DNA from: Hylemonella gracilis ATCC 19624
GTDB taxonomy: Bacteria > Pseudomonadota > Gammaproteobacteria > Burkholderiales > Burkholderiaceae_C
DNA: 64,000 nt
Direction: 5' to 3'
Assembly (NCBI RefSeq): GCF_000211835.1
Contig: NZ_AEGR01000050.1
Span: 1 to 64,000 of the forward strand
Below, piece by piece: positions 6,952 through 64,000 of this stretch (its first letter is position 1; every line of letters starts with the position of its first letter). The translations under genes and the position numbers were made by a program. A model generated the notes under the pieces. That model ran no database searches. It was not told where the DNA came from and saw only the letters and a list, made by a program, of their open reading frames with translations.

Positions 6952-6960
6952 GCCCAAATT

Positions 6961-8179: not shown

Positions 8180-8240
8180 GTCTGAGATTGCATCAAATCG
8201 GTGCCAGGCCTTGCCCCGAGCACCGATCAGCTGGCAAGGA

Positions 8241-9338: not shown

Positions 9339-9588
9339 GTGAAAAGTCCTTGATGGGTTGAACAAAGTCTTCGAAAGACCGTTGGGAATTATGACAGCCT
9401 AGTCACGGCCGTCTGGGGGATTTGGTACGCAAGAAGCATGCCTTTGATCTGCATCAGTTGCGCGTGAGCAACAGGGAGTTGCACGAGGTCGTGCCTGCCT
9501 GAGGCCGAGTGCGGAGGCTGTTACATCCTGTGCTTGGCACAGCGGCCTTGTGACTTGCTGTCCCACCACAGTTGGCGGTCCAGCGCGC

Positions 9589-11457: not shown

Positions 11458-11505
11458 GGTGGATGGCGCTGGGCCGTTGCGTGGTGGGGCGAGCCGTGGG
11501 CCCGG

Positions 11506-40309: not shown

Positions 40310-42796
40310 TCAGTCCACATCTATCGACTTGACCATGACGCCGAGTTTTCTCGTGTCCTGGCTGGTGGAGATTTCTGCGGGAGAAATGGCCATGGGTGTT
40401 TCCAGACGAATATCAACCCTGCCTTTGGTGGTATCTGCGTCTTGAATATTCAACTCATAAACTTTATAGCCATCCGGGAGTTCAGAAACGCGCCATGTCG
40501 TTCGCAAAATGCCATTGACCGAAACGTTGACAGATTGCGTTTTTAGTCCGGCCAGTGAGAAGCGCAGTCGGTAGCGCCCAGGCGCCAATGGCAGATTAAG
40601 CGTGGCACCGTCACCCTCCGTCCAACGGGCATCAGGCTCCGCCCCGCTCCAACCCTCGCCGACATACCAATCGCTGTGGCCTTGCCCGCCGAAAAGAATC
40701 CGCCCATGCCGACTCAGTGTTGAGATCTCGCTGAAGTTGAGTTTGAACAGGTGGAGCGACAAGTCTTGCCCGACATTTCCCATGGGAAGAACGTCGTATT
40801 CCCCTCTGTAATGGGAAGAAAGCTTGAGCGTGAAAATTCCTTCATTTTCCGCAGCCAGTTGAGTAGGCTTGGAGATATTTGTAGAGAGGATATAAATGTT
40901 GCCGGCCAGAAAACGTTTCGGAATCGATTGAATGAAATTTCGAATTTCACCGTCTGAACCGTGAATGAAGACAGCCCGCTTCCCGTAATAGTACCGAAGC
41001 GCCGTTCTTAACGGCATGTATTGTTTGTGAGGCATGTCCAGCAGAACAAGGTCTTCATCGCCGAAGTGACGCATCAGTGGCTTGAAGCTTGCATCCAGAT
41101 GAGCCATTTCGCGTTGCCCGCCCTGTATTGCCAGCAAGTTCAGATTCCAAGCCAAACAAAACAGAAGAGAGATCCATGTCCCGATCTTGATCCAGCGCTT
41201 CGGATGGTCCAGGCCCGTCGCCATTGCAAGGGCAGCGGCAATGATGGCGATGGGCACCGCATCAGTGGACAAATAGCGACCAAAGTAATAGTAAGGAATG
41301 ATTGGATCGTCGGCCACTGTTCGTAGCACAGTTATCCAGGCCAAGGTCAGCAGGAATACTGCGCCACTCCATGCGGCGATGCGAGAGCCGCGTACGACAT
41401 AGAGCGCGGCGAGCACCAAAACCATCGGTGATATGTACAGCATCAGCGCGAACAGCGAGACATGCGAGAGCGAGTTCAGTCCCTGATGAGGTAATTGATA
41501 TTCCTGCAAGTACTCATTGGCAGCGTAGACATCCGTGAAAGCAAGCCGGTAGCCGATGACGCAGCAATACACGGTGACCAGCAAAAGCAATCCAGACGTG
41601 ATGTATCTGACAGTGACAATGCCGTGCTTTTCGGCCCACTCCCGCAGTGAGGTGCGATATTTCCAGGCTGCCCGGAAGATCGGCGCACAAGTCAACGTTG
41701 CGATAGCAAAAATGAGCGGGGAGTGATCGAGATATATCGATCCCAAATGCGGTCCCAATATGGCTCTAAAAGTATCGTAGGTGTAGGGGAAGGAATACGT
41801 CAAGCCATAGAGTAGCGACAGGCAATACGTGACCAAGACGAGCATGAAGTACAGCGCCGGCGTACGAGCTTCAGTCGCATCCCGTGCCGCGACGACGAGT
41901 GACAAGGCGATTAGGCCCAAGATGGGTAAGAACAGAAACGCCGAGATGTGTGTGAACGTCAGGCACAACCAGCAGCCCAATGAAAATAGCAAGTAATGGT
42001 TGCTGCGTTGGCCATCGTTCCGCTGCTTCCAGTAGCACAGCAGGAAGTAAAGTGTGCTCGCTAGAAGGAAGGTGACCAGACTTTCCGACAAGGGGAAGCC
42101 TGCCAGAAAAACGTGCATGGTGTTGGTGGCCAGAAGCGCGGCAGTAATGCCGCCGGCCCAAAGCCGCCTACCTGACAATTCGAAGGCAATCAGGCCAAGA
42201 ACAAGAATGTTCAGCAGGGAAAAGACCACGGCCGCATATGCCCGGTTATCCGGGCCCGCGATGGTGGAGGCTGCAGCGAGCCACAGCGAGTGAAGGGGAT
42301 AAAACTGGAATACATACTGTGATGTGTTCAGGTCCTTGATGTACACACCGGGGTCGGCGGTTCCTTCGTGTTGGTCAGGAACTGCATTCTTAAATTTCCA
42401 GAAGTTGTACTTGTCGTAGTAGGCTCGTGCTTCCACTGGCAACGCTTCACGAAGTTCGTCCTTGATTGCCAATGAGCCAGTGCGCTCAACATAAGAGGAG
42501 ATGTTGACATATAGACCTTCGTCTTGGCCGCCCCAGACATACAAGCCAGGATGAAGACGCAGGCTTAAGGCCGCCAAGCCGAGCGCGAGAACGACGCCCC
42601 AACTGGTACGGCTGGGCCAGCGTATCGATTTCACGCATGAGAAATAAAACGTGCTGGTCAGCAATGTGCCCAGCACGATCGCGGCAGCCGCATCAAAGGC
42701 ACGGAATGCCAATAGGAGCAGCATGACGATGCTGGTGCTGATGATGGCTGCGCTGACGAGGTCGAATGGAGCTATGGTGAATTTCTGGAGCTTCAT
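40310..42796 (-). CDS. GT-C-type membrane glycosyltransferase with C-terminal beta domain
   Basis: An 828-residue polytopic protein. Around a dozen hydrophobic helices fill residues ~10-560. The first large periplasmic loop holds GGQDEGLYV (~88-96), an acidic motif placed like the catalytic Asp/Glu of ArnT/PMT (GT39/GT83) proteins. Residues ~570-700 are soluble, and the last ~130 look like a beta-sandwich (GRYRLRFSLAGLKTQSVNVSVNGILR). Such enzymes use polyprenyl-phosphate sugars on the outer face of the membrane. With its GT4 partner it forms a reversed two-gene unit inside the plus block and may add a side sugar after export. Confidence 0.75.
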   Translation of the reverse strand: MKLQKFTIAPFDLVSAAIISTSIVMLLLLAFRAFDAAAAIVLGTLLTSTFYFSCVKSIRWPSRTSWGVVLALGLAALSLRLHPGLYVWGGQDEGLYVNISSYVERTGSLAIKDELREALPVEARAYYDKYNFWKFKNAVPDQHEGTADPGVYIKDLNTSQYVFQFYPLHSLWLAAASTIAGPDNRAYAAVVFSLLNILVLGLIAFELSGRRLWAGGITAALLATNTMHVFLAGFPLSESLVTFLLASTLYFLLCYWKQRNDGQRSNHYLLFSLGCWLCLTFTHISAFLFLPILGLIALSLVVAARDATEARTPALYFMLVLVTYCLSLLYGLTYSFPYTYDTFRAILGPHLGSIYLDHSPLIFAIATLTCAPIFRAAWKYRTSLREWAEKHGIVTVRYITSGLLLLVTVYCCVIGYRLAFTDVYAANEYLQEYQLPHQGLNSLSHVSLFALMLYISPMVLVLAALYVVRGSRIAAWSGAVFLLTLAWITVLRTVADDPIIPYYYFGRYLSTDAVPIAIIAAALAMATGLDHPKRWIKIGTWISLLFCLAWNLNLLAIQGGQREMAHLDASFKPLMRHFGDEDLVLLDMPHKQYMPLRTALRYYYGKRAVFIHGSDGEIRNFIQSIPKRFLAGNIYILSTNISKPTQLAAENEGIFTLKLSSHYRGEYDVLPMGNVGQDLSLHLFKLNFSEISTLSRHGRILFGGQGHSDWYVGEGWSGAEPDARWTEGDGATLNLPLAPGRYRLRFSLAGLKTQSVNVSVNGILRTTWRVSELPDGYKVYELNIQDADTTKGRVDIRLETPMAISPAEISTSQDTRKLGVMVKSIDVD

Positions 42797-42851: not shown

Positions 42852-42966
42852 CTCGCTAAGTCGGTCCGGCCTCGCTTGATGAGTCATGGTCTTGGCATTA
42901 TCGGTAGATCGACACTCCATATTCGCGCGGCTTTCAACTCAAGTACCAGGTTTCATTCATCGCATC

Positions 42967-44196
42967 ATGTCGAAATCCTATGCGTGCCACGTGTGTGGCA
43001 GTTCGGTCACCCCCTTCATTTCCTTTGGCAAGCAGCCCATTGCCAACGGTTTCTTGAAGAAAGAGGATTTTGGCAAGGAGTATTTCTTTGAGATGCAGGT
43101 TTGCCATTGCCAAAAATGCAATATGGTGCAACTTGCGGAGCAGCCAGATAGAGAGCAGATGTTCAATGAGAACTATGCGTTCTTTTCAGGTACATCCACG
43201 CACATGGCGCGTCATTTTGAGCAGTTTGCGCAAACGGTTCGGACTCGTTTTTTGAGCGAGGCCAAAGATCCCTTGATCATTGAAATGGGCAGCAACGATG
43301 GCATCATGCTGCGCAATTTCAAGGGTTGGGGCTATCGCCATGTAGGTATCGAGCCCTCGGCCAACGTCGCAAAAGTTGCGCAAGATCAGGGTGTTAATAC
43401 GCTCGTGCGCTTTTTCGATGAAGACACCACCGAACTGCTTCTCAAGCAATATGGCCAGGCAGACGTTTTCTATAGTGCCAATGTGATGTGCCACATCCCT
43501 TATATCGGGCAGATTTTCAAGGGTATCAGTCGCATTCTCAAGCCGAGTGGCGTATTGGCGTTTGAAGATCCGTACCTGGGCGACGTGATCGAGAAGACTT
43601 CCTACGATCAGGTTTACGACGAACACACCTTTCTGTTTTCTGTGCTGTCAGTGCAGTATCTGGCGGGGCTTCACGGGCTTGAGATTTTTGACGTCGAGGC
43701 GCAGGAAACACATGGTGGCTCGATGCGGTATTACATCGGGCACAAAGGGCAGCACGGAATCACGGCAGCGGTCGAGAATCAAGTGCTCAAGGAAAAGGCG
43801 TTGGGGCTTGCCTCGTTGGCGACTTTCGAACAGTTTCGCAAAAATTGCGAGCAGTCCCGTGCCGATCTTGTCAAATTGCTGACTGACCTCAAGCGCCAGA
43901 ACAAGCGCGTCGTGGGCTATGCGGCCACGTCCAAGAGCACAACGGTGCTCAACTACTGCGGCATCTCTTCCGATCTGATTGAATTCATCAGCGACACGAC
44001 GCCAAACAAGCAGGGGAAATTCAGTCCAGGCCAGCACATTCCGGTGTTAGCTTACGAGAACTTCAAGAAGAATTATCCCGACTATGCGCTCCTGTTTGGC
44101 TGGAATCACAAGAAAGAGATTCTGGAAAAAGAAGGTGACTTTATGGCCAGGGGCGGCAAGTGGATTGTTTTTGTCCCGCAGGTCGGGATTGAATAA
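42967..44196 (+). CDS. NDP-sugar C-methyltransferase family protein (TylCIII/EvaC-like)
   Basis: A 409-residue protein with the three-part layout of sugar C-3 methyltransferases: an N-terminal zinc-binding segment (Cys7/Cys10 and Cys48/Cys51, CHVC and CQKC), a SAM-binding domain (IIEMGSNDGIMLRNF), and a C-terminal Rossmann-like domain (VVGYAATSKSTTVLNYCGI). The catalytic region YDEHTFLFSV replaces the HEH-type motif common in the family. The ATG at 42,967 is chosen because family members start with the zinc segment. It heads a row of two SDR genes and is likely to act on a keto-sugar nucleotide in that pathway. Confidence 0.85.
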   Translation: MSKSYACHVCGSSVTPFISFGKQPIANGFLKKEDFGKEYFFEMQVCHCQKCNMVQLAEQPDREQMFNENYAFFSGTSTHMARHFEQFAQTVRTRFLSEAKDPLIIEMGSNDGIMLRNFKGWGYRHVGIEPSANVAKVAQDQGVNTLVRFFDEDTTELLLKQYGQADVFYSANVMCHIPYIGQIFKGISRILKPSGVLAFEDPYLGDVIEKTSYDQVYDEHTFLFSVLSVQYLAGLHGLEIFDVEAQETHGGSMRYYIGHKGQHGITAAVENQVLKEKALGLASLATFEQFRKNCEQSRADLVKLLTDLKRQNKRVVGYAATSKSTTVLNYCGISSDLIEFISDTTPNKQGKFSPGQHIPVLAYENFKKNYPDYALLFGWNHKKEILEKEGDFMARGGKWIVFVPQVGIE

Positions 44197-51549: not shown

Positions 51550-52518
51550 CTAACGAGTTTCGGTCTTTTCGGGCCACTGTGCGGCCAGCTCCATGCGCCG
51601 TAGCCGATACTGCACATCTTCCAGCAGCTTGCGATTGACACCAAGTAAATCCGCCAAAAAGGCCGCAATCACGGTGTAGAAGCCTGCGCCGATCAGAATG
51701 GATGCCAATATCAGCGACTGAATGTGTCCGTCAGAACCCTGCGTGAACCAGGCGACCAAGAAACGCAGACCTAGCAAGGCACCTAGAAAAATTAAAATCA
51801 GCCCGATCGACATGAAGAATCGGAAAGGGCGATAAATCACAAACACCCGAACGATGGTCGTGACAGACTTCTTGATGTAGGACGAAATGCTTTTGAGCAG
51901 CTTGGATGGGCGCAATTCGCCATTCACGCGAACCGGCACGGATTCGATGCGCATGTTTTTCTGCCCGGCCTGAATGATGGTTTCCAGTGTGTAGGTATAG
52001 GTATTGAAGACGTTCAGTCGCAACGCGGCATCACGGCTGATGGCGCGAAAGCCGCTGGGTGCATCATTGACGGTCGTACCGCTGACCATGCGTACCACCA
52101 GACTGCCAAGCCGTTGCAGCAGTTTCTTGATCGGTGAAAAATGCTCGATGTCGCGGATGGGCCGAGCACCGATCACCAGGTCGGCGCGATGCTCGATGAT
52201 GGGTTTCACCAGATCGGGAATGCACTTTGCGTCATATTGGTTGTCCGCATCCGTGTTGACAATGACGTCGGCCCCCGCTTTCAGACAGGCATCCAGCCCG
52301 GCCATGAATCCTTTGGCCAGGCCCTGATTCTTGTTGAAGCTGACGACATGGTCCACGCCATGCGATTTGGCCACCTGAACTGTGCCATCGGTGCTTCCAT
52401 CGTCAATGACGAGCCATTCCACGGAGTCGAATCCTTGGACTTTCCGCGGTAAATCTGCCAGCGTGATGCCCAAGGTGGCTTCTTCATTGAAGCATGGGAT
52501 TTGAATGATGAGTTTCAT
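51550..52518 (-). CDS. GT2-family membrane glycosyltransferase (DPM1/GtrB-like)
   Basis: A 322-residue GT-A enzyme. Its parts are IIQIPCFNEEATLGITL, LVIDDGSTDGTVQVA, the DxD at VNTDADNQYD, and a C-terminal pair of hydrophobic helices (~225-250 and 262-290). This layout is that of polyprenyl-phosphate sugar synthases, which could supply a lipid-linked donor to the GT-C enzyme at 40,310. The ATG at 52,518 shares a base with the rmd stop (TGATG). It is the last gene of the minus-strand block. Confidence 0.9.
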   Translation of the reverse strand: MKLIIQIPCFNEEATLGITLADLPRKVQGFDSVEWLVIDDGSTDGTVQVAKSHGVDHVVSFNKNQGLAKGFMAGLDACLKAGADVIVNTDADNQYDAKCIPDLVKPIIEHRADLVIGARPIRDIEHFSPIKKLLQRLGSLVVRMVSGTTVNDAPSGFRAISRDAALRLNVFNTYTYTLETIIQAGQKNMRIESVPVRVNGELRPSKLLKSISSYIKKSVTTIVRVFVIYRPFRFFMSIGLILIFLGALLGLRFLVAWFTQGSDGHIQSLILASILIGAGFYTVIAAFLADLLGVNRKLLEDVQYRLRRMELAAQWPEKTETR

Positions 52519-53387
52519 CAAAATCCTTGATTGGAAGAGAGCATCCAGGTCAAAGTATCCGACAAAGACACTTGCTGCTGCGTGACGCCACGGTCTGCGA
52601 GCAGTTTGCGAAGCTTGGCAGGGTTGCCGCAAAGCCGATGCACTTCATTGGCGCGTACGAATGCTGGATTGACCTTGACTTCCAGTTTGTGCGCGCTCAA
52701 TCGTGAAAGTGTTTCAATGACATGCTGCAGAGTATAGGTCTGACCGGAGCACACGTTGTAGGTCTGTCCAACTTCACCATGTTGTAGCAGCTGCAAATAG
52801 GCATCGCATACCATCCGCACGTCGTTGTACTCCCGCTCCACATGCAGATTGCCAAGTTCGATGAATGGTGATTTGTTCGCAAAGTGGCCCACAATTTTGG
52901 GGATGACGAAACTCTTGTCCTGTCCGGGTCCGGTGTAATTGAAGGGGCGCGCGATGACAATGGGCAGTTTGTCCGCGTAAGTTCGTGCCATGTACTCCAT
53001 CGCCAGCTTGCTCATGGCGTAGTGGTTGACCGGCGCGGGGAACTGGTCTTCGACAAGGGGCGACGCTTCGGCGTTGCCGTACACATTGGCGCTGCTTGCC
53101 AGCAGTACCTGACATGGAGGCGAGGGCAGTTTGGCCAAGGCGGCCAGCAAATTCATGGTGCCGATGGTGTTGACGGCATAAAACGTCTGCTCATCCTGGT
53201 GGATGATAAAGCTGATGGCGGCCAGGTGCACCACTACATCGGGCCCGGCGGCCAATACTTCATGTTCAACGGCTTCGCGTTCGCCCAGCTGGGCACGCAG
53301 CGCCACGACCTCGTGCCCCGCAGCTTGGGCATGGCGGGTGAAGTGCCGTCCCGTGAAGCCGCCGGCACCGGTGAGCAAGATTTTCAC
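52518..53387 (-). CDS. rmd: GDP-6-deoxy-D-mannose reductase
   Basis: A 289-residue SDR that reduces GDP-4-keto-6-deoxymannose to GDP-D-rhamnose. It shows LLTGAGGFTGRHF, LLASSANVYGN and the catalytic YAMSKLAME. Assignment as Rmd rather than another SDR rests on its place next to gmd and on the similarity of the RPFNYTGPGQDKSFVIPKIV stretch to Rmd proteins. No GDP-fucose synthase-like gene competes for the same intermediate. Confidence 0.9.
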   Translation of the reverse strand: MKILLTGAGGFTGRHFTRHAQAAGHEVVALRAQLGEREAVEHEVLAAGPDVVVHLAAISFIIHQDEQTFYAVNTIGTMNLLAALAKLPSPPCQVLLASSANVYGNAEASPLVEDQFPAPVNHYAMSKLAMEYMARTYADKLPIVIARPFNYTGPGQDKSFVIPKIVGHFANKSPFIELGNLHVEREYNDVRMVCDAYLQLLQHGEVGQTYNVCSGQTYTLQHVIETLSRLSAHKLEVKVNPAFVRANEVHRLCGNPAKLRKLLADRGVTQQQVSLSDTLTWMLSSNQGF

Positions 53388-54464: not shown

Positions 54465-55703
54465 TTAGACAATTTCGATCTCGGGGAACGGGAAAATGAA
54501 TTTGCCGCCACTCGCCAGATATTCCTTCTCGCGGCGCAAAATGCCATCCTTGAAGTGCCAGGGCAGGACGAGGAAGTAATCCGGGTTCATGGCGCGGGCA
54601 TCGGCTTCCGACACGATGGGGATGTGTGTTCCGGGCGTCACTCGGCCATATTTCTCCGGGTTTACTTCCGCGATGGCCGGAATGTCCTTGGCTGTCAAAC
54701 CGCAAAACTGCAGCACCACATTGCCCTTGGTGGAGGCGCCATAACCCAGCACTTTCTTACCGTCAGCCACCAGCGCTCGAATCAGTCGCACCAAGTCCTC
54801 ACGGTGGCGGAAAACCCGCTCTTCGAATTCCCGGTAGGGTTTGGGTGTGTGGATACCCATGCGGTCTTCCTGCTCCAGCAGCCATTGCACCACGGCGTGA
54901 TTGACCTTGCGCGACGTATTGCCCACCTTGGTGGCAGTCACGGCGAAGCTGCCGCCATTGATGTTGTTCATGATGACGTCCACGACCTTCAGGCCGGCGG
55001 AGGTCAAAATCTTCTGCACGACGCCTAGTGAGTAATATTCCAGGTGTTCGTGGCAAATGGTGTCGTAGGAGTTGAGGCGCAGCATCGACGGCATGTAGCT
55101 CTGCTCGAAATGCCAGACACCATCATCTGCCAAGCACTGCTCGATCTGCCGCGCAAAGGCGATCGGGTCTTCCAAGTCGTAGAACATCGCGATCGATGTG
55201 ATGATCTTGGCCGGCTTGTTCATGGCGGACTTGTAAGCCGCTGCCGAGAAAAAATCCGGCACCAGTTTTATATCTGCCGGGTAATACTGGGCGAACTTCT
55301 TGCCCGTCGGATCGATGCCGATGCGCTGAAGATCCTTGCGCTCATAAGCCTTGAGCGTGGTGCAGTCATTGCTGCCGATATCTAGCACCGCATCGCCAGT
55401 AGTCAGTGGTACCAAGCGCTCCAGATAGCGCACCTTGCTCGTCAGGTGATCCACCATGGACTGGTTCAGGCCCGAGCGATAACCATAGTTTTCGCCATAC
55501 ATTTCCGACGATTCGTAGCTGTGCTTGAGTTGCAGCAAGCCGCTGTCAGGCGACCACACCAGTTCCAGCGGACCGTTGGTGACAGGCTCGGACGCGCTGC
55601 GGGGGAAAACCCCGGTCAGAGCCTGATGCCCAAGATTCAGCACGGAAACCAGATTGCTGCTCTTGCCGACCCGACATTGGGTGATTTCATGATAGTTCAG
55701 CAT
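54465..55703 (-). CDS. C-methyltransferase-family protein lacking most zinc cysteines
   Basis: A 412-residue member of the same three-part family as the protein at 42,967. SAM motif I is VLDIGSNDCTTLKAY, the ICHEHLEYYSL segment carries the HEH-type catalytic motif, and the C-terminal domain has VLGYGASTKGNVVLQFCGL. In the N-terminal zinc segment Cys10 remains, but the second Cys is Gly13 and the second CxxC pair reads Ser51-Pro-Asp-Ser54. It is placed before gmd, so it may act on a GDP-keto sugar or on the glycan, as a methyl cap or branch. Confidence 0.87.
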   Translation of the reverse strand: MLNYHEITQCRVGKSSNLVSVLNLGHQALTGVFPRSASEPVTNGPLELVWSPDSGLLQLKHSYESSEMYGENYGYRSGLNQSMVDHLTSKVRYLERLVPLTTGDAVLDIGSNDCTTLKAYERKDLQRIGIDPTGKKFAQYYPADIKLVPDFFSAAAYKSAMNKPAKIITSIAMFYDLEDPIAFARQIEQCLADDGVWHFEQSYMPSMLRLNSYDTICHEHLEYYSLGVVQKILTSAGLKVVDVIMNNINGGSFAVTATKVGNTSRKVNHAVVQWLLEQEDRMGIHTPKPYREFEERVFRHREDLVRLIRALVADGKKVLGYGASTKGNVVLQFCGLTAKDIPAIAEVNPEKYGRVTPGTHIPIVSEADARAMNPDYFLVLPWHFKDGILRREKEYLASGGKFIFPFPEIEIV

Positions 55704-55736
55704 GTTTGCCTTTTTAATCAATATGAGTAGAGTTCG

Positions 55737-56660
55737 TCACGCAATGCGACTCAACATTTGGTCAAGCCGTTCAAAGTCCTTTTGAGGCGCATGCCGGTTT
55801 TGCAGGTCCCGCCGGACGGTATTTGCCCAATCCGGCTCGACTTCGGTTTTGATGACGCGGCGGAGATGTCGCGCCTCCATCGATTCGGCACCGAAAATCG
55901 ATTCGATGATATCAAGCAGACCGTCGATCTGAATGCCTAGACGGGAGAGCATGCCGTCTTTTGAGAAACTGTCGTTGCCGCCACGCCTGTTCAGCAGAAC
56001 TTCGTGGAGATAGGCAAGCCTGAATGGCTCGTCCATCAGCGACCATAAACGCCCTATGTGCGCCCAGTTGGAACCGTTGAACGACGGCGTAAGCCTACCT
56101 TGAAACCAACGTTGGCGTTTGATTACCAGTCCACCCATGAACGATAGGAATGCCTCGGACGTGCGTGCGGCCTCGAGATATGCGCTTCTTTCATCGCCAT
56201 TCTGAAGATCGAAGACTTTGTTTGTTTTGATCGACAGAACGGGCCAGTCTTTGAGCACCGTCATATCGACGGTGCATTCGTTGTGCCGACTCAGGACGAG
56301 ATCGGGTTGCCAGCGTCTCAGCGTGTTCAAGACCTTTTCAATGGCTCCCGGCAGCATCACGTCATCGCCGGAGAAAAGCCAGCAATAGGGCGTGCTTGCA
56401 AGTTCGACGCAGCGTGCCATGTCTGCGTCAATGCCGCCTTTTTTCAAGGCGCGCACATACCGGAAGTTCGGGTAGTGCCTGGCATAGCTGCGCGCGACGT
56501 GTGGTGTGTTGTCCGTTGATCCGCCATCAAACACAAGCACTTCGATCTTTTCAGCAAGTGTTTGATCGAGAATGCTATCCAGCGTCTGCGGCAGAAAGGC
56601 CCCGAAGTTATGCACGGGGATGGCGATGGACAGCAGCCGGTCCTCAGATGCGGCGCTCAT
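55737..56660 (-). CDS. GT2-family glycosyltransferase
   Basis: A 307-residue GT-A enzyme of the abequosyltransferase RfbV kind. N-terminal SIAIPVHNFGAFLPQTLDSIL, VLVFDGGSTDNTPHVA, and the metal-binding WLFSGDDVMLPGAI (DD in place of DxD) are clear. No membrane helices. Its ATG overlaps the stop of the giant fusion gene (ATGA, 56,657-56,660). It resembles the GT2 domain at the end of that protein in the LLGDDD/LFSGDD region. Confidence 0.9.
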   Translation of the reverse strand: MSAASEDRLLSIAIPVHNFGAFLPQTLDSILDQTLAEKIEVLVFDGGSTDNTPHVARSYARHYPNFRYVRALKKGGIDADMARCVELASTPYCWLFSGDDVMLPGAIEKVLNTLRRWQPDLVLSRHNECTVDMTVLKDWPVLSIKTNKVFDLQNGDERSAYLEAARTSEAFLSFMGGLVIKRQRWFQGRLTPSFNGSNWAHIGRLWSLMDEPFRLAYLHEVLLNRRGGNDSFSKDGMLSRLGIQIDGLLDIIESIFGAESMEARHLRRVIKTEVEPDWANTVRRDLQNRHAPQKDFERLDQMLSRIA

Positions 56661-59600
56661 TGCATTGCAGCTTTCAGGATATCCATGGAGGTTTTGGCCA
56701 AGGGATGGTTCTGCCCCTGCGCCTTGGCATAAATCGTTTCCAGTTGCGGATAGAGTGTCCGGAACTCGTTCAGATGTCGCGAGCGACGGATGAAACGTGT
56801 CACGTCAAAAGATGCGAAAGAGGAAAGATCGTATTCCGACTCGAAGAGGATTTTGAAGAAACCCGGAACCATCTGCAGCGTGTGCCGCCGCCAGCGATCA
56901 GCCTGCTCTTGCGCAACCCCTTTTAGCTCAGCCAGGTCGTACACCTCGGGAAGTCGTTCCAAGATCCACAAGGGCGCGTACTTGCCCCAGGAGACGTTCA
57001 TATTGATCGTTATCTGGGGCTCGTTGATCCAGTATCCCGGCAGATCCATCATGTACGACAAGATGTACTTCGACGATGGCACGCAGGTCTGCAGGTTCGA
57101 GAACGGCGCTCCACTGGTGTCCTGATTGAAGATCTTCTGAGCATGTTTCCGCTTCACAACGAAGGTGTAGATCGCCGTGTAGAAGTTCTCATTGAATGCG
57201 GAGATGTCTTGCACCTTGCCCGGTCCTGATGCATCGCCTTGCGAGATCTTGAGGGCCGCTGCGAAATAGCGATCCAGCTTGTCAATTGATGGAGGAACCG
57301 GCTCGGGGGTGTAAGCGTAATTGACGTTGATGAGATCCGGCGCATCTTTCTCGATGACACCAAGCACACGTTCCAGCGCACCCTGATGTAGAAGATCGTC
57401 GTCACCTAAAAGCCAAACATAAGCGCCACGCGCATGGGCAACTGTCTGCGGCAGATTGCCGAGCATCCCGATGTTGGCAGTGTTCCGATAGTAGAAGAAA
57501 TTCTTGTGGGTAAAGAACCGGGCCGCAATCTCTGGAGTCTTGTCCTCAGAACAGTTATCGCAAACGATGATCTCAATTTTGTCTCGGACCGCCTGCGAGA
57601 CGCGCATCAAATTTTCCAGATTAACGGCAAGCCAGTCCGCGCGGTTGTATGTGGTAATACAGATTGATATTGTCGGCTGGGCGGGAAGTTCATAACTCGC
57701 AATGGGCGGTGTTTGCAGTCGTGAATTCGAATTCGGTTTCAGATTCGCGGCCCGGATGCAGGCCGAAATCTCGGCCGCGTATTCATCCCATGTCTTGAAG
57801 TGGCAGTCGAGAATTTCGTCCTTGAGTTGTTTCGCGCGATCTGGGTCGTTTGCCAAGCGCACAATCGCATTGCTCATGTCTTCGACACTTCGCACGTCAA
57901 TAGTTTCGCAGCCGCCATGTGCGGCCAGTTCGCCCATCTGACCGCTTGCCGAGCAGATGCACGGGACGTCGAACCACAGGCTTTCAACGATAGGCATGCC
58001 GAATCCTTCTTCGAAAGAAGGAAAGACAGTGAAATCGGCCTGCTCGAATTGTTCCTTCAGGAGCGCATCGGTTGCCTTCTTGATCCAAGTGATGCTCTTG
58101 CTGTTGCCGATGAGCGCGGTGATTTTTCCTGGCAAATCCTTGTCGAACGATTCGTCGCCGCCCACAATTGTCAGCCGCAGCTTGCGAGTCGACTTCTTTT
58201 CCGCTTCAAAAAAAGCACGAATCAGTGTCTCGTGGTTCTTGCGTGGTTCGACTGTTCCGACGGCGAGGATATTGCAAGGCTTGTCAGCATCGAAAGCTGT
58301 TTCCCTCGTTGTTGCCCGCGCCTCTGGAAACTCGAATGGAAGGGCGACCGTCTTGACGCGTGTTTCGATCGACAAGCCGCGACAGGCGCTTGTGCCGAGA
58401 TAGTCGATGAAGTCTCTGGCGCTCGTGCCAGATATTGGAAGGATGAAATCCATCCTGTCCAGCAGTTCCATGTAGTCCATGTGGGCGCTGGCAAAGTGGG
58501 GCGGATAGAGGGCTGAAAGCTTGTAGGGGATAGCGTCGTAAAAAACGGCGGCACAGCGGACAGCTCTTTCCTTGAAGAAAGTGAGCACTCGTTCTTGAAT
58601 TTCGAGCGGCCGATTGAGTGGTAACTCCACCATCAGATAGGCGGCTTCCGCCTCAATTTGTGTGCTGGCGAACGACTGGCCCCAACTGTCCGGCTCGGGA
58701 CCATTCCAGTGCGCTAGGTAGTCCAAATCTTTCCTGGAGGCCAAGACAATGGAATTACTGTGCTCGTCCCATTTGATCGGCACCAGCCTGTGCCCTTGTT
58801 TCATTAGATGCTTGGCGAGCTGGCGAGTGACCCGCTGGATGCCGGTATTGCTGCTGGCCGCCAAGGTGGCGTCAACCCAGTAGTAGATGGGCCCTTCGGC
58901 GGGTTTGCCAAACTGCAGTTTGTCCATGTCAGCGCACAGGCCACCGGCATACTCGAACCATGACTTCACTGGGCGCCGCATGATTTCGTCTATCTTTGCG
59001 CGATAGAGACTCTCATCTTCGATCAGTGCAGTGATCGCGGACAGGAGTGCATCAACACTCTGGGTATCGGCGGCCACGCATCCGCCATTGGCATGGAGCT
59101 CGGCCATGGAACTGAAGTTGGCGCAAATGCAAGGCTTGATGTTCCAGAGACTTTCCACGATGGGCAGGCCGAAGCCTTCTTCCAGCGACGGAAATACCGT
59201 GAAATCACTATTCACATAAAACTGTTTGATGTCCTCGTCGCTGGCGCCATAGTGAAGTTCGATGTTCGGGTTTTGCGAGGTCTCTCGCTCTATGATTTTC
59301 CTGTAGTTTTCGCGAACCATGCCAACGATCTTCAACTTCCACCGAGTGTCTTGATGACTGGCGCAATATCTGTTGAATGCCTTGATCAGCGTGATTTGGT
59401 TTTTGCGCTCGTCAATGGTTCCAACGCAAACAATGCTTCGGTCGTTGTCGGAATCGCGGTCAATCCGCCGCGGTGTGTCCATCTCCTCTGCCAGCACGGC
59501 AACTGATATGGCAGGCATGTCGGCGTCATCAATCTTGTCGTAACGCTTGTAATAATCGATCAGATGTTCAGCTGAATAGCGCGAGATGGGCCAAATGACG

Positions 59601-61249
59601 TCTGCGAGCGCAATCGTTGACGTGTAGTCTGCGTGGTTCCGCGCGTTCTCGCCTGCGTCTTCGGTGAGAAAAGGGATGATGTCGTAATAGATCACACCGA
59701 CCCGCATGCTGAAGTCCCGGGCAAGCTTGATCAGTCTTGATGTCGGGGGATTGGCGTGATGCGTGTGATAGGTGACCTCCGGTATGATTAGCCAATGCTT
59801 GCGTGGATGGTCTTGCAAGGCCGTCAGCATGCCCTCGAATACCGCCGGATCATGAAGCCGGTCATTTCCAAAGCTGCCGAACCCCGCTTGTTTGAGAAAG
59901 TTCTGCCGCTCGCTGGCATCCAGCGGCGCCAAGCGGAGGGTTGTGGGATCGAGCTTGATCAGAACAACCATCTCGCCATTGCTTTCCAGCATCGGCGCGA
60001 GCTTGTGGCACACGCGCTGGACGCCGGTGATCCTGTCAAACGAGGCTGTGTGCTCGACATAAAGCAAAACGACTCGTTGGTTATCACGTACGATGTCTTT
60101 GCCCAGTATGCCGTCAGCCAAAGGAGATAAAGCGCTTGTCCGCGTCGCGGACGGATTTGAGATATGCACAAATCGGCGCCGGACAAGCGCCACCTGCATT
60201 TTTTGCTTGATGGCCGGAAATCGATTCAGAACCCGCAGCGCCATTGCTTTGAGAAACCGGTTTCTTGCAATGAGCGGATGCAAAAAGAATATCGGCTTCA
60301 TCGCCGCCAACTTCAGCGTGTGCTTCCAATCGGCGAATGCTTTTTGTGCGGGGCGGGTGAGTTTCTTCAGCAGCGCCTTCGAGCGGGATTTCAGACCCTG
60401 TTCGCGCAAGCGGCGGATTTGCAAAGCGCCCCAGCGCATTGGCGCTGTGATGCGCCAAGAGCGGCTTTTGAGCATGGATTCAATTTCAGCGCGAACCTGC
60501 TGGGCTTCAGCACGAGCCTGCTGGGCTTCGGCTCGAGCCTGCTGGGCTTCGGCATGCGCCTGCTTTTCGGCCGCGCGCACAAAGCCGTCCAGCACATTTG
60601 GTGGGTAGCGCAGCTTGTCAAGCAAGTGCGAATGCTCTTGAGCCACATAGAAACGATTGAGACCATCCGCGTAGGCAAATACGTAATTGGCAGTCAATAC
60701 CAGTGATTCCCATTGCTGGTGGTCTTCGACTGTCGAATTGGGTGCGATGGCCTCAATAACCAATATCCAAGGGCGGAATCGTTGGAAGTCCATCCCTTCC
60801 AGCACGGTTTTTTCAAAGCCTTCCACGTCAATTTTCAGAAAGTGGATGTTGCCAGTCGCGTGTTCCGTGCAAATGTCGGTCAAGGTGCGCACGGGAACTT
60901 TGTGCAAGACGCCGTTGTGCCCCGTGGCTTGGTGCTTGGCGATGACTTGCGGATCCAGGGTCGCCCAGCCACGTACATCGCCCTCCCACAACTCCAACTC
61001 GCCAGGAGCATTCCCAGCGGCGCAGCGCAGATTGATGTCCCGGGGGCGTTCCCGGGCCAAGTCGGTCCAGTGCGATGCCAGTGGCTCGATATTGACGCCA
61101 TGCCAGCCGCGCTCGTAAAACGCCTTGGTGATGGAGTCTTCGTGCGGGTCGTTGGCGCCAGCATCAATGTAAAAGCCCTGTGCCACGCCCTTCAGGGCGC
61201 GCCAGAGTACGACGTCTTCGAGGTTCTGTGCGAAGGAAACAAAAGTCAT
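56657..61249 (-). CDS. 1530-residue fusion: FkbM methyltransferase, heptad repeat, two GT4 domains, GT2 domain
   Basis: The start is the ATG at 61,249 (family-like SFAQNLEDVVLWRAL follows); a GTG 14 codons earlier is possible. Residues ~1-215 are an FkbM-type SAM methyltransferase (FYIDAGANDP at 26, FLKIDVEGFE at 137). Residues 233-256 are AEAQQAR heptads, then a basic helical linker to ~385. GT4 domain one (~390-775) has CVGTIDERKNQ and EEGFGLPIVE; GT4 domain two (~790-1170) has AVGTVEPRKNH and EEGFGMPIVE. The GT2 domain (~1192-1530) has ITTYNRADW and GDDDL (1282-1286). No membrane helix is seen. The gene lies between wzt and a GT2 gene and probably builds and possibly caps the chain. Roles of single domains are inference. 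Confidence 0.9.
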   Translation of the reverse strand: MTFVSFAQNLEDVVLWRALKGVAQGFYIDAGANDPHEDSITKAFYERGWHGVNIEPLASHWTDLARERPRDINLRCAAGNAPGELELWEGDVRGWATLDPQVIAKHQATGHNGVLHKVPVRTLTDICTEHATGNIHFLKIDVEGFEKTVLEGMDFQRFRPWILVIEAIAPNSTVEDHQQWESLVLTANYVFAYADGLNRFYVAQEHSHLLDKLRYPPNVLDGFVRAAEKQAHAEAQQARAEAQQARAEAQQVRAEIESMLKSRSWRITAPMRWGALQIRRLREQGLKSRSKALLKKLTRPAQKAFADWKHTLKLAAMKPIFFLHPLIARNRFLKAMALRVLNRFPAIKQKMQVALVRRRFVHISNPSATRTSALSPLADGILGKDIVRDNQRVVLLYVEHTASFDRITGVQRVCHKLAPMLESNGEMVVLIKLDPTTLRLAPLDASERQNFLKQAGFGSFGNDRLHDPAVFEGMLTALQDHPRKHWLIIPEVTYHTHHANPPTSRLIKLARDFSMRVGVIYYDIIPFLTEDAGENARNHADYTSTIALADVIWPISRYSAEHLIDYYKRYDKIDDADMPAISVAVLAEEMDTPRRIDRDSDNDRSIVCVGTIDERKNQITLIKAFNRYCASHQDTRWKLKIVGMVRENYRKIIERETSQNPNIELHYGASDEDIKQFYVNSDFTVFPSLEEGFGLPIVESLWNIKPCICANFSSMAELHANGGCVAADTQSVDALLSAITALIEDESLYRAKIDEIMRRPVKSWFEYAGGLCADMDKLQFGKPAEGPIYYWVDATLAASSNTGIQRVTRQLAKHLMKQGHRLVPIKWDEHSNSIVLASRKDLDYLAHWNGPEPDSWGQSFASTQIEAEAAYLMVELPLNRPLEIQERVLTFFKERAVRCAAVFYDAIPYKLSALYPPHFASAHMDYMELLDRMDFILPISGTSARDFIDYLGTSACRGLSIETRVKTVALPFEFPEARATTRETAFDADKPCNILAVGTVEPRKNHETLIRAFFEAEKKSTRKLRLTIVGGDESFDKDLPGKITALIGNSKSITWIKKATDALLKEQFEQADFTVFPSFEEGFGMPIVESLWFDVPCICSASGQMGELAAHGGCETIDVRSVEDMSNAIVRLANDPDRAKQLKDEILDCHFKTWDEYAAEISACIRAANLKPNSNSRLQTPPIASYELPAQPTISICITTYNRADWLAVNLENLMRVSQAVRDKIEIIVCDNCSEDKTPEIAARFFTHKNFFYYRNTANIGMLGNLPQTVAHARGAYVWLLGDDDLLHQGALERVLGVIEKDAPDLINVNYAYTPEPVPPSIDKLDRYFAAALKISQGDASGPGKVQDISAFNENFYTAIYTFVVKRKHAQKIFNQDTSGAPFSNLQTCVPSSKYILSYMMDLPGYWINEPQITINMNVSWGKYAPLWILERLPEVYDLAELKGVAQEQADRWRRHTLQMVPGFFKILFESEYDLSSFASFDVTRFIRRSRHLNEFRTLYPQLETIYAKAQGQNHPLAKTSMDILKAAMQ
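60492..60575 (-). repeat. 21-bp tandem repeat coding for AEAQQAR heptads
   Basis: Three near-identical 21-bp units (60,492-60,512, 60,513-60,533, 60,534-60,554) plus a degenerate fourth. Each codes one seven-residue coiled-coil heptad of the fusion protein. Unit length is a multiple of three, so copy-number change keeps the frame. Confidence 0.9.
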
Positions 61250-61361: not shown

Positions 61362-62588
61362 TCAGATCTGCGGAGTCACTTCTATTTTCGTATCCAGCCA
61401 TGCACACCCTGCGAAATGCGACTTGTCGATGTTGACTACATTGAAAATCAGGGCCAGGTCCCGCCATTCATAATTGTTGACGAGATGAGTTTCCGTGCTG
61501 ACTAGCGCGGTTTGTATCGAATAGGTTCCCGGGCCAAGGTTGGCCGGAAACTGGATGTCAAACAAATGCGTTTGCCCTGCGCGCACGTTGAGCAAAGGCT
61601 GCTTTGTCAGATCTGTATTGGTCCCGTAGATCGTTTGCCCCAGCCGGTCTTTGATGCTGTAGCCCAGAATCAGGCGGGGAATGTCCTGTTTGACCTGGAC
61701 TGTAATACGCAGACGTACTGGCTGGCCCACGCCCACGAATTCGAGTGGCTGCCCTTCAATGTTGGTGATCTGGACTTGCGTGACCACGGCTTCACCGGTC
61801 CCGGAGGTGGTTTCCGCTTTGCCATCGCTCCGTTGAATCTGTTGCACACGTTGGCTCTGATGAGCTGCCAGCATCGCGTTGTAGTAATCCATCACTTCTT
61901 CTGGCTTGCTTTCCATCGCGATACCGCCTTTGTTGAGCAGGATGGCGCGGTCGCACACGCTCTGAATGGCCTGTTTGTCGTGACTCACCAGCAGGAGGGT
62001 CGTGCCTTGCTTGCGAAACTCGCGGATGCGGTCGAAGCTCTTGTGCTGAAAGAAGGCGTCACCAACTGAGAGGGCTTCGTCGACGATCAGGATGTCGGGC
62101 CGTATGGCGGTTGCTACGGCAAAGGCCAGCCGTACCTGCATGCCGCTGCTGTAAACGCGCACAGGCTGATCCATATAGTCGCCGACTTCGGCGAAGGCTT
62201 CGATATCCGGCATCAGGCGCTGGAGTCCTTCTGCGCCATAGCCCAGCAACTGCCCTGCCATGATGGCGTTTTGCCGCCCGGTGAAGTCCGGGTGGAAGCC
62301 CATGCCAAGTTCTAGTAGTGCGGCTACACGGCCCGTCATCCGCACGCTGCCAGTGGTGGGCTGGGTGGTGCCGGCGAGCATCTTGAGCAGCGTGCTTTTG
62401 CCTGCGCCGTTGATGCCGATGATGCCCACGGCTTCGCCAGGTTGGACGTTGAAGCTAACGTCTTGCAGCACCCAATGCAATTGGTGGCGTGGTTTGTCGC
62501 GCGGGTCCAGCCATTCGGCCGCGCGATGCCAGCGGCGCGTGTACTGTTTATATGCCTTGCCAAGGCGGGTCACGGTGATGTAGCCCAT
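61362..62588 (-). CDS. wzt: ABC transporter ATPase for polysaccharide export, with C-terminal binding domain
   Basis: A 408-residue protein. The ATG at 62,588 shares one base with the wzm stop (TAATG); longer frames upstream are shadows of wzm. Walker A GINGAGKS is at 58-65, the signature YSSGMQ at 146-151, Walker B ILIVDE at 166-171, His203 in VSHD. Residues ~265-408 form a beta-rich extension (LEFVGVGQPVRLRITVQV, LLNVRAGQTHLFDIQFP) of the Wzt C-terminal kind that in E. coli O9a binds the capped glycan end. This suggests that export depends on recognition of a terminal modification. Confidence 0.94.
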   Translation of the reverse strand: MGYITVTRLGKAYKQYTRRWHRAAEWLDPRDKPRHQLHWVLQDVSFNVQPGEAVGIIGINGAGKSTLLKMLAGTTQPTTGSVRMTGRVAALLELGMGFHPDFTGRQNAIMAGQLLGYGAEGLQRLMPDIEAFAEVGDYMDQPVRVYSSGMQVRLAFAVATAIRPDILIVDEALSVGDAFFQHKSFDRIREFRKQGTTLLLVSHDKQAIQSVCDRAILLNKGGIAMESKPEEVMDYYNAMLAAHQSQRVQQIQRSDGKAETTSGTGEAVVTQVQITNIEGQPLEFVGVGQPVRLRITVQVKQDIPRLILGYSIKDRLGQTIYGTNTDLTKQPLLNVRAGQTHLFDIQFPANLGPGTYSIQTALVSTETHLVNNYEWRDLALIFNVVNIDKSHFAGCAWLDTKIEVTPQI

Positions 62589-63379
62589 TACAGTTCGTCC
62601 GTCATTTCGCCCGCGCGCTTGCGATAGAGCTGCAAGCCAAGAACGCAAAAGAAAAAGGCCGCAAACGCGGGCCACCAGAGACTGGGCCAGTGAGGCCACT
62701 GGCCGGTGACCAGAATGCACTGGAAGGCGGCCATGACCGGTGTCAGCGGGTTGAGGTTCAGCCAGGGCTGGGCCCAGGCGGGCAGGATGCTGAGGGGGTA
62801 GACGATGGGGGTGAGCCAAAACCAGAAGGTCAGCATCAAGCCAAATAAATGGCCGACGTCGCGAAAGAAAACATTTAGCACGCCCAGTGTGACGCCCAGA
62901 CCGATGGCGAAAACGACGAGCAAGGCCAGCAATGGAAAGAGTGCCAGGCTGGGCCAACCTGGGAAGTTACCTGTAAGTAGCAAAAAGAGGGCGAACAGGC
63001 CAAAGACAATTGCGAAATTGACGCTGGCGTTGAGGACGACAATGACGGGTAGGGCAAGGCGCGGGAAACTCACTTTCTTGAGCATGTTCGCGTGCTCAAT
63101 AAAAGTGATAAGTCCACGACTTGCGATTTCGGTGAACAGACCCCAGGTGAGGAGGCCCGCACACAGATAGATGCTGTACCCGAAAGTGTTTTCTATCCCG
63201 GGTAGCTTGGCGCGCATGACATTAGCGAATATGACGGTATAAACCGTGATCATTGCCAGAGGATTGATGATGACCCAGCTCATCCCCAATACGGAATGCC
63301 GGTACTTGAGCTGAAACTCACGCTGGACGCTGCCGAGGATGAAGCCGCGATATCCCCATAGGATTCGAAATAATGTCAT
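62588..63379 (-). CDS. wzm: ABC transporter permease for polysaccharide export
   Basis: A 263-residue inner-membrane protein of the ABC-2 type with six helices. It shows LGMSWVIINPLAMITVYTVIF, LLTWGLFTEIASRG, NMLKKVSFPRLALPV and the FFRDVGHLFGLML region, as in Wzm/KpsM-type exporters. With Wzt it moves undecaprenyl-PP-linked glycan to the periplasm. It lies 23 bp after manC. Confidence 0.94.
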   Translation of the reverse strand: MTLFRILWGYRGFILGSVQREFQLKYRHSVLGMSWVIINPLAMITVYTVIFANVMRAKLPGIENTFGYSIYLCAGLLTWGLFTEIASRGLITFIEHANMLKKVSFPRLALPVIVVLNASVNFAIVFGLFALFLLLTGNFPGWPSLALFPLLALLVVFAIGLGVTLGVLNVFFRDVGHLFGLMLTFWFWLTPIVYPLSILPAWAQPWLNLNPLTPVMAAFQCILVTGQWPHWPSLWWPAFAAFFFCVLGLQLYRKRAGEMTDEL

Positions 63380-63402: not shown

Positions 63403-64000
63403 CTATTTCCCGGCAGGCAGTTCCGTGCGACCGTACTTATCCGCGAGGCGGACGATGTCGTCCTCCCCCAGATAGCTGCCGCACTGGACTTCAATCAATA
63501 CCAACTCGTCGTCACCAATGTTGGTGAGGCGATGTTTCTCCTTGAGTGGGATGTATCGGTATTGGCCGGGCACGGTGAGGTGTTCCAAGTCGCCGATTTG
63601 CACGATGGCCGTTCCTTGCACCACCACCCAGTGTTCCGCGCGTTGGTGGTGGTATTGCAGGCTGAGCGACTGGCCGGAGCGAACCGTGATCCGTTTGACC
63701 TTGTAGCCCGTTTCTTCTTTGAGCGTGGCATAGGTACCCCATGGGCGATGCACGATGGCGGGAAGTTGCGTACAGCTTTGCTGGCGGGCTTTGAGTGCGT
63801 CCACCACAGACTTGACCTTCTGCGCTGCGTCTTTGTGAGTGACCAGCAGGGCATCGGGTGTGTCTACGATAACCAGATCGCGAATGCCGACTGTCGCGAC
63901 GATTTTGGGGCCATGGCTTTCCACGTGCACATGGGTGCCGCTGGTGTCCACGCCTATGTATTCTGTGCCACGAGCGCAGTTCAAGGTGTTGCCACTAGGG
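63403..64000 (-). CDS. manC: Mannose-1-phosphate guanylyltransferase / mannose-6-phosphate isomerase, C-terminal part
   Basis: Only the last ~199 codons are inside the window; the frame is open to base 64,000. The visible part holds the end of the guanylyltransferase domain (VGIRDLVIVDTPDALLVTHKD) and the whole type II phosphomannose isomerase cupin (RPWGTYATLKEETGYKVKRI, LQYHHQRAEHWVVV, GEDDIVRLADKYGR). It supplies GDP-mannose for gmd/rmd and for mannosyl transfer. It precedes wzm by 23 bp in the minus-strand operon. Confidence 0.96.
   Translation of the reverse strand, partial: PSGNTLNCARGTEYIGVDTSGTHVHVESHGPKIVATVGIRDLVIVDTPDALLVTHKDAAQKVKSVVDALKARQQSCTQLPAIVHRPWGTYATLKEETGYKVKRITVRSGQSLSLQYHHQRAEHWVVVQGTAIVQIGDLEHLTVPGQYRYIPLKEKHRLTNIGDDELVLIEVQCGSYLGEDDIVRLADKYGRTELPAGK

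What the first reader, a model, noticed from the sequence alone, without database searches (positions are those of the whole stretch)
56657..61249. Single 1530-residue chain joining FkbM methyltransferase, heptads, two GT4 and one GT2 domain next to wzm/wzt
In the E. coli O9a system chain extension (WbdA) and methyl capping with a coiled-coil length ruler (WbdD) are two proteins, and Wzt's C-terminal domain reads the cap. Here a methyltransferase of another family, a short coiled coil and three transferase domains are on one chain beside a Wzt with a C-terminal domain. A working hypothesis is that it is a self-contained polymerase and terminator. This is inference; FkbM domains in glycan clusters have mixed roles.
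Basis: partly seen in the sequence, partly recalled or inferred. Interest (0 to 1): 0.8.

Follow-up and report, generated by a model that had tools for sequence, protein, structure and literature searches.

The report
One-chain O-antigen polymerase with built-in ruler
One very large bacterial protein appears to both build a surface sugar chain and stop it at a set length by adding a methyl cap, using a helical rod as a ruler; single-chain machines of this kind are known in Klebsiella, but this one seems to use a different family of capping enzyme that recurs in many bacteria.

Summary
The ORF is real: window 56657-61249 (-), 1530 aa, FkbM methyltransferase / 40-residue coil / GT4 / GT4 / GT2, directly downstream of wzm and a wzt with Wzt_C. 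Best reading: a single-chain O-polysaccharide polymerase-terminator. (1) A 62-aa stretch over the coil end matches E. coli O9 WbdD (42%), while the catalytic domains are unrelated. (2) Of 80 loci chosen by FkbM similarity alone, 60 have wzt with Wzt_C just upstream, usually in the O9 gene order. (3) Coil lengths (36-298 aa, 76 proteins) follow the coiled-coil period of 3.5 residues. (4) Some Wzt residues that bind a 3-O-methyl cap in Aquifex are kept more often in FkbM cassettes than elsewhere. Two other genomes carry the same five-part protein with coils of 167 and 271 aa. Against: five Acetobacteraceae-type fusions of FkbM with three GT4 lie in genomes without Wzt_C. Single-chain polymerase-terminators are known (Klebsiella O12, O7), so this is a new variant. 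No biochemistry was possible; the methyl cap and its site are inferred.

The parts
56657..61249 (-). whole fusion protein, 1530 aa plus stop: FkbM-coil-GT4-GT4-GT2
60581..61249 (-). FkbM methyltransferase domain (residues 1-223); proposed capping (terminator) enzyme
   Evidence: Pfam PF05050 29-190; 30-row alignment with invariant D29, G31, K139, D141, E143, G144; AlphaFold2 block pLDDT 86-98 from residue 11 to 220 except 72 at 31-40
60461..60580 (-). coiled-coil spacer, residues 224-263 (40 aa); proposed length ruler
   Evidence: a/d pattern, predicted helix 226-261, length 5 mod 7
60485..60564 (-). 21-bp tandem array (3.8 copies) coding the heptads
60434..60466 (-). SxSW(R/K)xTxP(L/I/V/M)R motif (residues 262-272) at the end of the coil
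   Evidence: invariant S264, W265, T268, R272 in 30 rows; E. coli O9 WbdD has the first part, SRSWRMT
60221..60466 (-). post-coil segment (residues 262-343), homologous to WbdD 592-674; by analogy the membrane/polymerase docking part
   Evidence: predicted helices 263-283, 287-315, 331-343
58880..60052 (-). first GT4 unit (residues 400-790)
   Evidence: EEGFGLPIVE letters at 690-699
57740..58879 (-). second GT4 unit (residues 791-1170)
   Evidence: EEGFGMPIVE letters at 1080-1089
56660..57682 (-). GT2 unit with conserved C-terminal extension (residues 1190-1530)
   Evidence: GDDD letters at 1282-1285, identical in L111
61362..62588 (-). wzt: ABC ATPase with C-terminal carbohydrate-binding domain
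   Evidence: match to A. aeolicus Wzt 8dku_A over residues 6-402, E 4.4e-79
61395..61811 (-). Wzt_C (cap-reading) domain
   Evidence: PF14524 E 1.8e-39; pocket residues
62588..63379 (-). wzm: ABC-2 permease
63403..63999 (-). manC-type mannose-1-P guanylyltransferase / mannose-6-P isomerase (3' part; continues past the window)
   Evidence: as L054:13404-14960
55737..56660 (-). separate GT2 glycosyltransferase
54465..55721 (-). sugar C-methyltransferase (Methyltransf_13/14)
   Evidence: 78% identical in the syntenic L111
53418..54452 (-). gmd, GDP-mannose 4,6-dehydratase
   Evidence: TIGR01472 above cut-off
52518..53387 (-). SDR, probable GDP-4-keto-6-deoxymannose reductase (GDP-D-rhamnose; inferred)
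   Evidence: syntenic in L111 at 47%

Best explanation
The protein is a single-chain polymerase-terminator for an ABC-exported O polysaccharide. The C-terminal GT4, GT4 and GT2 units extend a lipid-linked chain at the membrane. The post-coil segment (residues 262-343), homologous to the membrane/WbdA-docking end of WbdD, holds the base of the coil at the membrane. The coil (40 residues) holds the FkbM methyltransferase away from the polymerase. Only a chain long enough to reach that far is O-methylated at its non-reducing end, which stops growth. The Wzt C-terminal domain then binds the methyl cap and Wzm/Wzt exports the chain. With manC, gmd and an SDR nearby the polymer is likely rich in D-mannose/D-rhamnose, and the cap is likely an O-methyl (perhaps 3-O-methyl) D-rhamnose or D-mannose. 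Shown here: the domains, homology of the post-coil end to WbdD, cassette order, coil register, conservation of part of the cap-pocket residues. Inferred: every enzymatic step, cap chemistry and site, and the ruler action.
For: (1) blastp: residues 238-299 match E. coli HS (O9) WbdD 568-629, 42%, E 1e-9; with the coil removed 39 aa at 44%, E 1.9e-7; with SEG masking 30 aa at 50%, E 2.8e-4. A profile of 74 post-coil segments of FkbM proteins finds WbdD 592-674 (domain i-E 3.8e-7 among 1357 sequences); reversed WbdD is not reported at E <= 0.01. (2) 60 of 80 loci have Wzt_C on the same strand within 2.5 kb upstream of FkbM (55 of the 70 with more than 3 kb of upstream sequence); usual order wzm-wzt-FkbM/coil-GT4s; E. 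coli HS O9 has guanylyltransferase-rfbK-wzm-wzt-methyltransferase (WbdD)-wbdA. (3) Post-coil motif versus adjacent Wzt_C over 114 FkbM proteins: 62 of 76 with the motif, 12 of 38 without, Fisher 2.5e-7; in separately fetched loci with at least 3 kb upstream 10 of 10 versus 2 of 17. (4) 76 coil lengths: 38 are 5 mod 7, 17 are 2 (one +4 step), 11 are 6 (two +4 steps), 10 in the other four classes; the best period from 2.2 to 14.95 is 3.5 (R 0.63); of 2000 jittered sets none reaches the observed R(3.5) at 80% or 70% clustering (55, 42 clusters) and 3 do at 60% (28 clusters). Of 23 coils with internal duplications the best shift is a multiple of 7 in 20 and 4 mod 7 in 3. (5) Cap-pocket positions in 73 FkbM-cassette Wzts versus 40 other Wzt_C: Asn313 73 vs 29, Arg304 73 vs 23, Trp362 65 vs 21 (Trp or Tyr 73 vs 22), His355 64 vs 11; at 60% clusters (26 vs 34) p is 2.5e-4 to 1.4e-3 except Trp alone 0.056.
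Against: 20 of 80 loci lack an adjacent Wzt_C, 15 of them with more than 3 kb upstream. For 19 of these 20 I searched the 18 genomes they lie in: 13 of 18 show no Wzt_C (several are MAGs and may be incomplete), among them the FkbM-GT4-GT4-GT4 fusions of L102, L113, L115/L134 and L130. L050, L051, L076, L101 and L178 have Wzm and a Wzt without the C-domain in the locus. Not all pocket residues are kept: the window has Ser, Gln, Val, Glu, Ala where A. aeolicus has L300, T346, H350, M353, V380, and at 50% clustering only the aromatic residue at 362 still differs (p 0.039). Arg at 362 also occurs beside ordinary methyltransferases (L201, L203, L205, L207, L216), so the aromatic residue is not a strict methyl signature. 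At 55% clustering (12 clusters) the coil-period signal is lost (304 of 2000 null sets reach it). FkbM without coil also stands beside Wzt_C at times (L143, G301, G336). The motif is missing, by my pattern, in some coil-bearing FkbM proteins next to Wzt_C (for example L061, L099, L108, L117). The GT-half structure model failed (mean pLDDT 39.6). I know of no polysaccharide structure for any FkbM cassette seen here.
Confidence: 0.75

Rival explanations
1. The FkbM domain methylates residues inside every repeat, as a decoration, and termination is done by another protein or by competition with export; the coil only tethers the domains.
For: FkbM enzymes generally have mixed roles (general knowledge); fusions exist in genomes where no Wzt_C was found; FkbM without coil also occurs beside Wzt_C now and then (L143; G301 and G336).
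Against: An ordinary decorating enzyme needs no register-quantised spacer, no WbdD-like base and no place just after wzt in 60 of 80 loci.
Confidence: 0.12
2. The FkbM domain is a catalytically idle scaffold or sugar-recognition domain that positions the polymerase; capping is done by a separate methyltransferase of the cluster.
For: Two C-methyltransferases lie in the window (42886-44196, 54465-55721).
Against: SAM-site letters (D29, G31, K139, D141, V142, E143, G144) are invariant in 30 rows; in E. coli HS and in 10 of 12 other motif-bearing genes next to wzt the N-terminal slot shows a modifying-enzyme match (that of L204 is below the Pfam cut-off); a relative of the 54465 C-methyltransferase at E < 1e-60 occurs in only 1 of 80 loci (L111).
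Confidence: 0.06
3. The system makes a capsule or another lipid-linked glycan and not LPS O antigen; the mechanism is otherwise the same.
For: I did not find the acceptor; the cluster lies near a PF02397 transferase and the genome shows one PF00953 protein, which may be MraY (the guess is mine).
Against: One Wzy_C/WaaL-type protein is present elsewhere in the genome, and Wzm/Wzt with Wzt_C is the O-antigen type (established knowledge).
Confidence: 0.2

Closest known systems
WbdD/WbdA, E. coli O9/O9a (PMC3482155 passages; E. coli HS locus)
   Same: Gene order wzm-wzt-terminator-polymerase; homologous end of coil with SxSWRxT and post-coil segment; GT4 units match WbdA (best pieces E 2e-13 to 1e-8).
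   Different: WbdD has a class I methyltransferase plus kinase, the window FkbM and no kinase match; WbdA is a separate protein; here a GT2 is added. The record names the HS gene only as class I methyltransferase; I take it as WbdD by place, its 708 aa and its domains.
K. pneumoniae O7 ORF6 (PMC11231755: abstract, passages, Discussion part 1)
   Same: One chain: methyltransferase end, coil, then two polymerase GT units.
   Different: O7 has another methyltransferase plus a kinase and a CBM, and two GT2; the window has FkbM and GT4-GT4-GT2.
K. pneumoniae O12 WbbB (as described in PMC11231755)
   Same: Polymerase and terminator on one chain with a coiled-coil ruler.
   Different: Cap is beta-Kdo added by a glycosyltransferase; GT families differ.
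A. aeolicus Wzm/Wzt (PMC9445017: abstract and passages)
   Same: Wzt alignable over window residues 6-402, E 4e-79; it binds a 3-O-methyl-D-Man/Rha cap; Asn313, Arg304, Trp362, His355, Ala348 and Tyr233 kept in the window.
   Different: Five other pocket residues differ; CBD identity 30%; the capping enzyme of A. aeolicus was not examined here.
Mann, Kimber, Whitfield 2019 census of chain-termination chemistry (seen only as reference 23 of PMC11231755)
   Same: By its title a census of terminators and CBM transporters; it may already list FkbM-type terminators.
   Different: Not held, not read; overlap unknown.

Membership tests
Coiled-coil glycan terminators (WbdD type) | N-terminal modifying enzyme | tested here: met
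   FkbM domain; SAM-site letters invariant; activity not tested
Coiled-coil glycan terminators (WbdD type) | Coiled coil following it | tested here: met
   a/d periodicity; period 3.5; no dedicated coil predictor was available
Coiled-coil glycan terminators (WbdD type) | C-terminal membrane/polymerase docking segment | tested here: met
   sequence homology to WbdD 592-674; docking itself not tested
Coiled-coil glycan terminators (WbdD type) | Terminates chains; coil length sets chain length | not testable with these tools
   needs mutants and chain analysis
WbdD proper (class I methyltransferase, kinase in O9) | Same catalytic domain family | tested here: not met
   FkbM profile does not hit WbdD; WbdD is Methyltransf_11/25/31 plus kinase
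Single-chain polymerase-terminator (WbbB, O7 ORF6) | Polymerase GT units and capping enzyme on one chain, separated by a coil | tested here: met
   architecture; polymerase and capping activity not tested
FkbM methyltransferase family | PF05050 / TIGR01444 above curated cut-off | tested here: met
   98.3 vs 22.7 bits; 53.1 vs 37.7
Cap-dependent Wzm/Wzt exporter | Wzt with C-terminal carbohydrate-binding domain | tested here: met
   PF14524
Cap-dependent Wzm/Wzt exporter | Cap-binding pocket of the A. aeolicus type | tested here: inconclusive
   Asn, Arg, Trp, His, Ala, Tyr kept; five others changed

The most novel reading that the evidence does not exclude
FkbM-coil proteins are a whole class of methyl-cap terminators, in most loci a separate gene between wzt and a multi-GT4 polymerase, and fused to the polymerase repeatedly. 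Coiled-coil terminators share one interchangeable ruler base (coil end plus SxSWRxT segment) onto which FkbM, other methyltransferases (with or without kinase) or perhaps a sulfotransferase are swapped, and the ruler grows and shrinks in whole heptads, or heptads plus 4 residues, through tandem duplication. The window protein (40), L163 (167) and L111 (271) are a natural ruler-length series on the same polymerase.
Probability: 0.6. Interest if true: 0.78.

Novelty: new variant of a known kind. Interest (0 to 1): 0.62.

Why it matters
It ties a group of glycan-cluster methyltransferases without an assigned role to a definite job, chain capping and export licensing, and gives a sequence hallmark (the SxSWRxT segment at the end of the coil) by which terminators with other capping chemistry can be recognised. 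The register-quantised coil lengths are evolutionary evidence that the spacer works as one continuous rod, and three homologous fusions with coils of 40, 167 and 271 residues make the ruler model testable on natural proteins.

Tried and rejected
Look-up of the whole chain in genome contigs confirmed no relative, so I searched with an FkbM alignment instead. Idea that aromatic versus Arg at Wzt position 362 tells methyl from other caps: rejected as a rule, since Arg362 Wzts also stand beside methyltransferases. Structure of the GT half: model too poor to use. Foldseek of the FkbM-coil model against PDB gives weak matches, in the rows shown nearly all methyltransferases, none at E <= 0.001. The profile of A2 against PDB sequences gave no methyltransferase, only what look like chance and helical matches. 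A3 was a poor alignment and was not used. Paper searches for FkbM with Wzt/Wzm/coiled-coil/chain termination: searches returned none, two papers that I did not open; the library lacks most subscription papers, so this is no proof of absence.
Full report
OBSERVATION. The frame 56657-61249 (-) codes 1530 aa. Pfam gives FkbM 29-190, GT4 600-751 and 993-1135, GT2 1195-1313. The gene follows wzm (62588-63379) and wzt with Wzt_C (61362-62588); manC lies before wzm, and a GT2, a C-methyltransferase, gmd, an SDR and another GT2 follow. G687, listed as of the same order, has a contig of the same length as that of Massilia phyllostachyos (L098; L171), so the window's genome is most likely of the Burkholderiales.

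RELATIVES. In 60 of 80 a wzt with Wzt_C lies on the same strand within 2.5 kb upstream of FkbM; of the 70 with more than 3 kb upstream, 55 do. The usual layout is wzm, wzt, a stand-alone FkbM-coil protein, then a protein with two or three GT4 units. This is the layout of E. coli HS O9: wzm, wzt, methyltransferase (WbdD), wbdA. FkbM and GT units are on one chain in 14 of the 80. On an FkbM tree of 101 rows, 18 of them fused, fused and split forms need at least 10 changes (quick tree, long branches, some frames cut by contig ends, so a rough figure).

SAME FIVE-PART PROTEIN ELSEWHERE. L111 (Nitrosospira MAG) and L163 (G467, unnamed, same order) have FkbM-coil-GT4-GT4-GT2 with 38% identity over about 1300 aa. 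L111 also keeps wzm, wzt, C-methyltransferase (78%), gmd (74%) and SDR (47%) in order; the separate GT2 at 55737 is not found there. Their coils are 271 and 167 residues against 40 in the window. Their FkbM domains do not group with that of the window on the tree (L163 is a long branch), so the capping module and the polymerase have probably been recombined. In a sample of 379 genomes of the order, 19 (own included) have a match at E <= 1e-30.

CONTROLS. Nine less similar FkbM loci: 1 of 9 has Wzt_C nearby (L143; L139 has almost no upstream sequence). Over 114 FkbM proteins, those with the post-coil motif have Wzt_C adjacent in 62 of 76, those without in 12 of 38; in the loci fetched separately, with at least 3 kb upstream, 10 of 10 and 2 of 17. 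Among the PF05050 hits listed for 369 class genomes (the list was cut), I saw by eye five within about 3 kb of a Wzt_C hit: G000, G394, G386, and, with open frames of 288 and 344 aa, G301 and G336.

LINK TO WbdD. E. coli HS WbdD carries SRSWRMT at 592, just after its coil, without the following P-L-R. Residues 238-299 of the window protein match WbdD 568-629 at 42% (E 1e-9); without the coil 39 aa remain at 44% (E 1.9e-7); with low-complexity masking 30 aa at 50% (E 2.8e-4). A profile from 74 FkbM post-coil segments scores WbdD 592-674 at i-E 3.8e-7 in 1357 sequences and does not report reversed WbdD. The FkbM profile does not hit WbdD. [quoted passage not shown]

THE COIL. Upstream of the motif, I/L/M/V/F residues peak at 3, 6, 10, 13, 17, 20, 24, 27, 31, 34, the 3-4 spacing of a coiled coil. 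Lengths between the end of FkbM and the motif in 76 proteins run from 36 to 298; modulo 7: 38 in class 5, 17 in class 2, 11 in class 6, and 2, 3, 3, 2 in classes 0, 1, 3, 4. Classes 2 and 6 are one and two steps of +4, the size of coiled-coil stutters (recalled). The strongest period between 2.2 and 14.95 is 3.5 (R 0.63). With one protein per cluster, R(3.5) is 0.56, 0.51 and 0.47 at 80, 70 and 60% (55, 42, 28 clusters), reached by 0, 0 and 3 of 2000 jittered sets; at 70 and 60% the best period is 3.55 slightly more often than 3.5; at 55% (12 clusters) 304 of 2000 reach the observed value. Of 23 coils with an internal duplication the best shift is a multiple of 7 in 20 and 4 mod 7 in 3. The window coil is itself 3.8 copies of a 21-bp unit.

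CAP READING. The window Wzt aligns with A. aeolicus Wzt nearly end to end, whose domain binds 3-O-methyl-D-mannose (PMC9445017, passages). I mapped the published contact residues (chain number = paper number + 1). FkbM-cassette Wzts, n = 73, against 40 other Wzt_C: N313 73 vs 29, R304 73 vs 23, H355 64 vs 11, W362 65 (plus 8 Tyr) vs 21 (plus 1 Tyr, 1 Phe). Differences stay at 60% clustering for N, R, aromatic 362 and H (Trp alone p 0.056); at 50% only aromatic 362 is left (p 0.039). The window differs at five other pocket positions.

A WIDER PATTERN. In 12 of those 40 other loci, in each the gene next to wzt, the same end-of-coil motif stands behind other N-terminal parts: Methyltransf_24 (L184, L202, L206, L209), Methyltransf_11/23/25 (L186, L188, L192, L194, L203), a sulfotransferase match just below the Pfam cut-off (L204), none recognised (L208; L193, where the motif is at residue 40). 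Seven of the twelve also carry GT domains (L184, L188, L192, L193, L194, L204, L206). In the other 28 loci the strict motif was not found.

AGAINST. Fusions of FkbM with three GT4 in L102, L113, L115, L130, L134 lie in genomes where no Wzt_C was found; 13 of 18 genomes searched behind 19 of the 20 loci without adjacent Wzt_C have none, though 14 of 18 have some Wzm-like permease. So a cap need not always be read by Wzt_C, or FkbM has another role there.

STRUCTURE. AlphaFold2 of residues 1-400 (30 rows): FkbM mostly above 86 pLDDT, long helix 226-261 at 74-95, then helices 263-283 and 287-315. The GT half failed.

VERDICT. A real fusion; a single-chain polymerase-terminator with an FkbM cap is the best reading (0.75). 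The format is known from Klebsiella O12 and O7; the FkbM cap, its spread, the shared ruler base and the register-quantised coil are what is new to me, with the proviso that the 2019 census could not be read.

Noticed in passing
L184, L186, L188, L192, L193, L194, L202, L203, L204, L206, L208, L209: The gene next to wzt carries the SxSW(R/K)xTxPLR end-of-coil motif with capping domains other than FkbM, in L204 a weak sulfotransferase match.
   Followed up: partly
L102, L113, L115, L130, L134: FkbM-coil-GT4-GT4-GT4 fusions in Acetobacteraceae-like genomes in which no Wzt_C was found; L113 has gmd and an SDR next to it; exporter unknown.
   Followed up: partly
L173:8278-10041: Sulfotransferase domain (Sulfotransfer_2) in front of an FkbM domain on one chain, short tail, followed by a three-GT4 protein.
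   Followed up: no
L181 (Rhodovastum atsumiense plasmid), 6348-11590: GT4-GT4-GT2 protein and FkbM protein as two genes in reverse order on a plasmid, no wzm/wzt among the genes listed in the stretch.
   Followed up: no
L182 (Azospirillum brasilense p5), L183 (Peteryoungia plasmid): Complete wzm-wzt-FkbM/coil-polyGT4 cassettes on plasmids.
   Followed up: no
window 42886-44196 and 54465-55721: Two sugar C-methyltransferases of the same Pfam make-up in one window.
   Followed up: no
window 40310-42796: 828-aa frame without any Pfam match at 1e-5.
   Followed up: no
Wzt_C position 362 in L201, L203, L204, L205, L207, L208, L210-L213, L216, L219: Arg in place of the methyl-stacking Trp in 12 of 40 other Wzt_C; neighbours vary (methyltransferases, weak sulfotransferase match, GT2 proteins), so its meaning is open.
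   Followed up: partly
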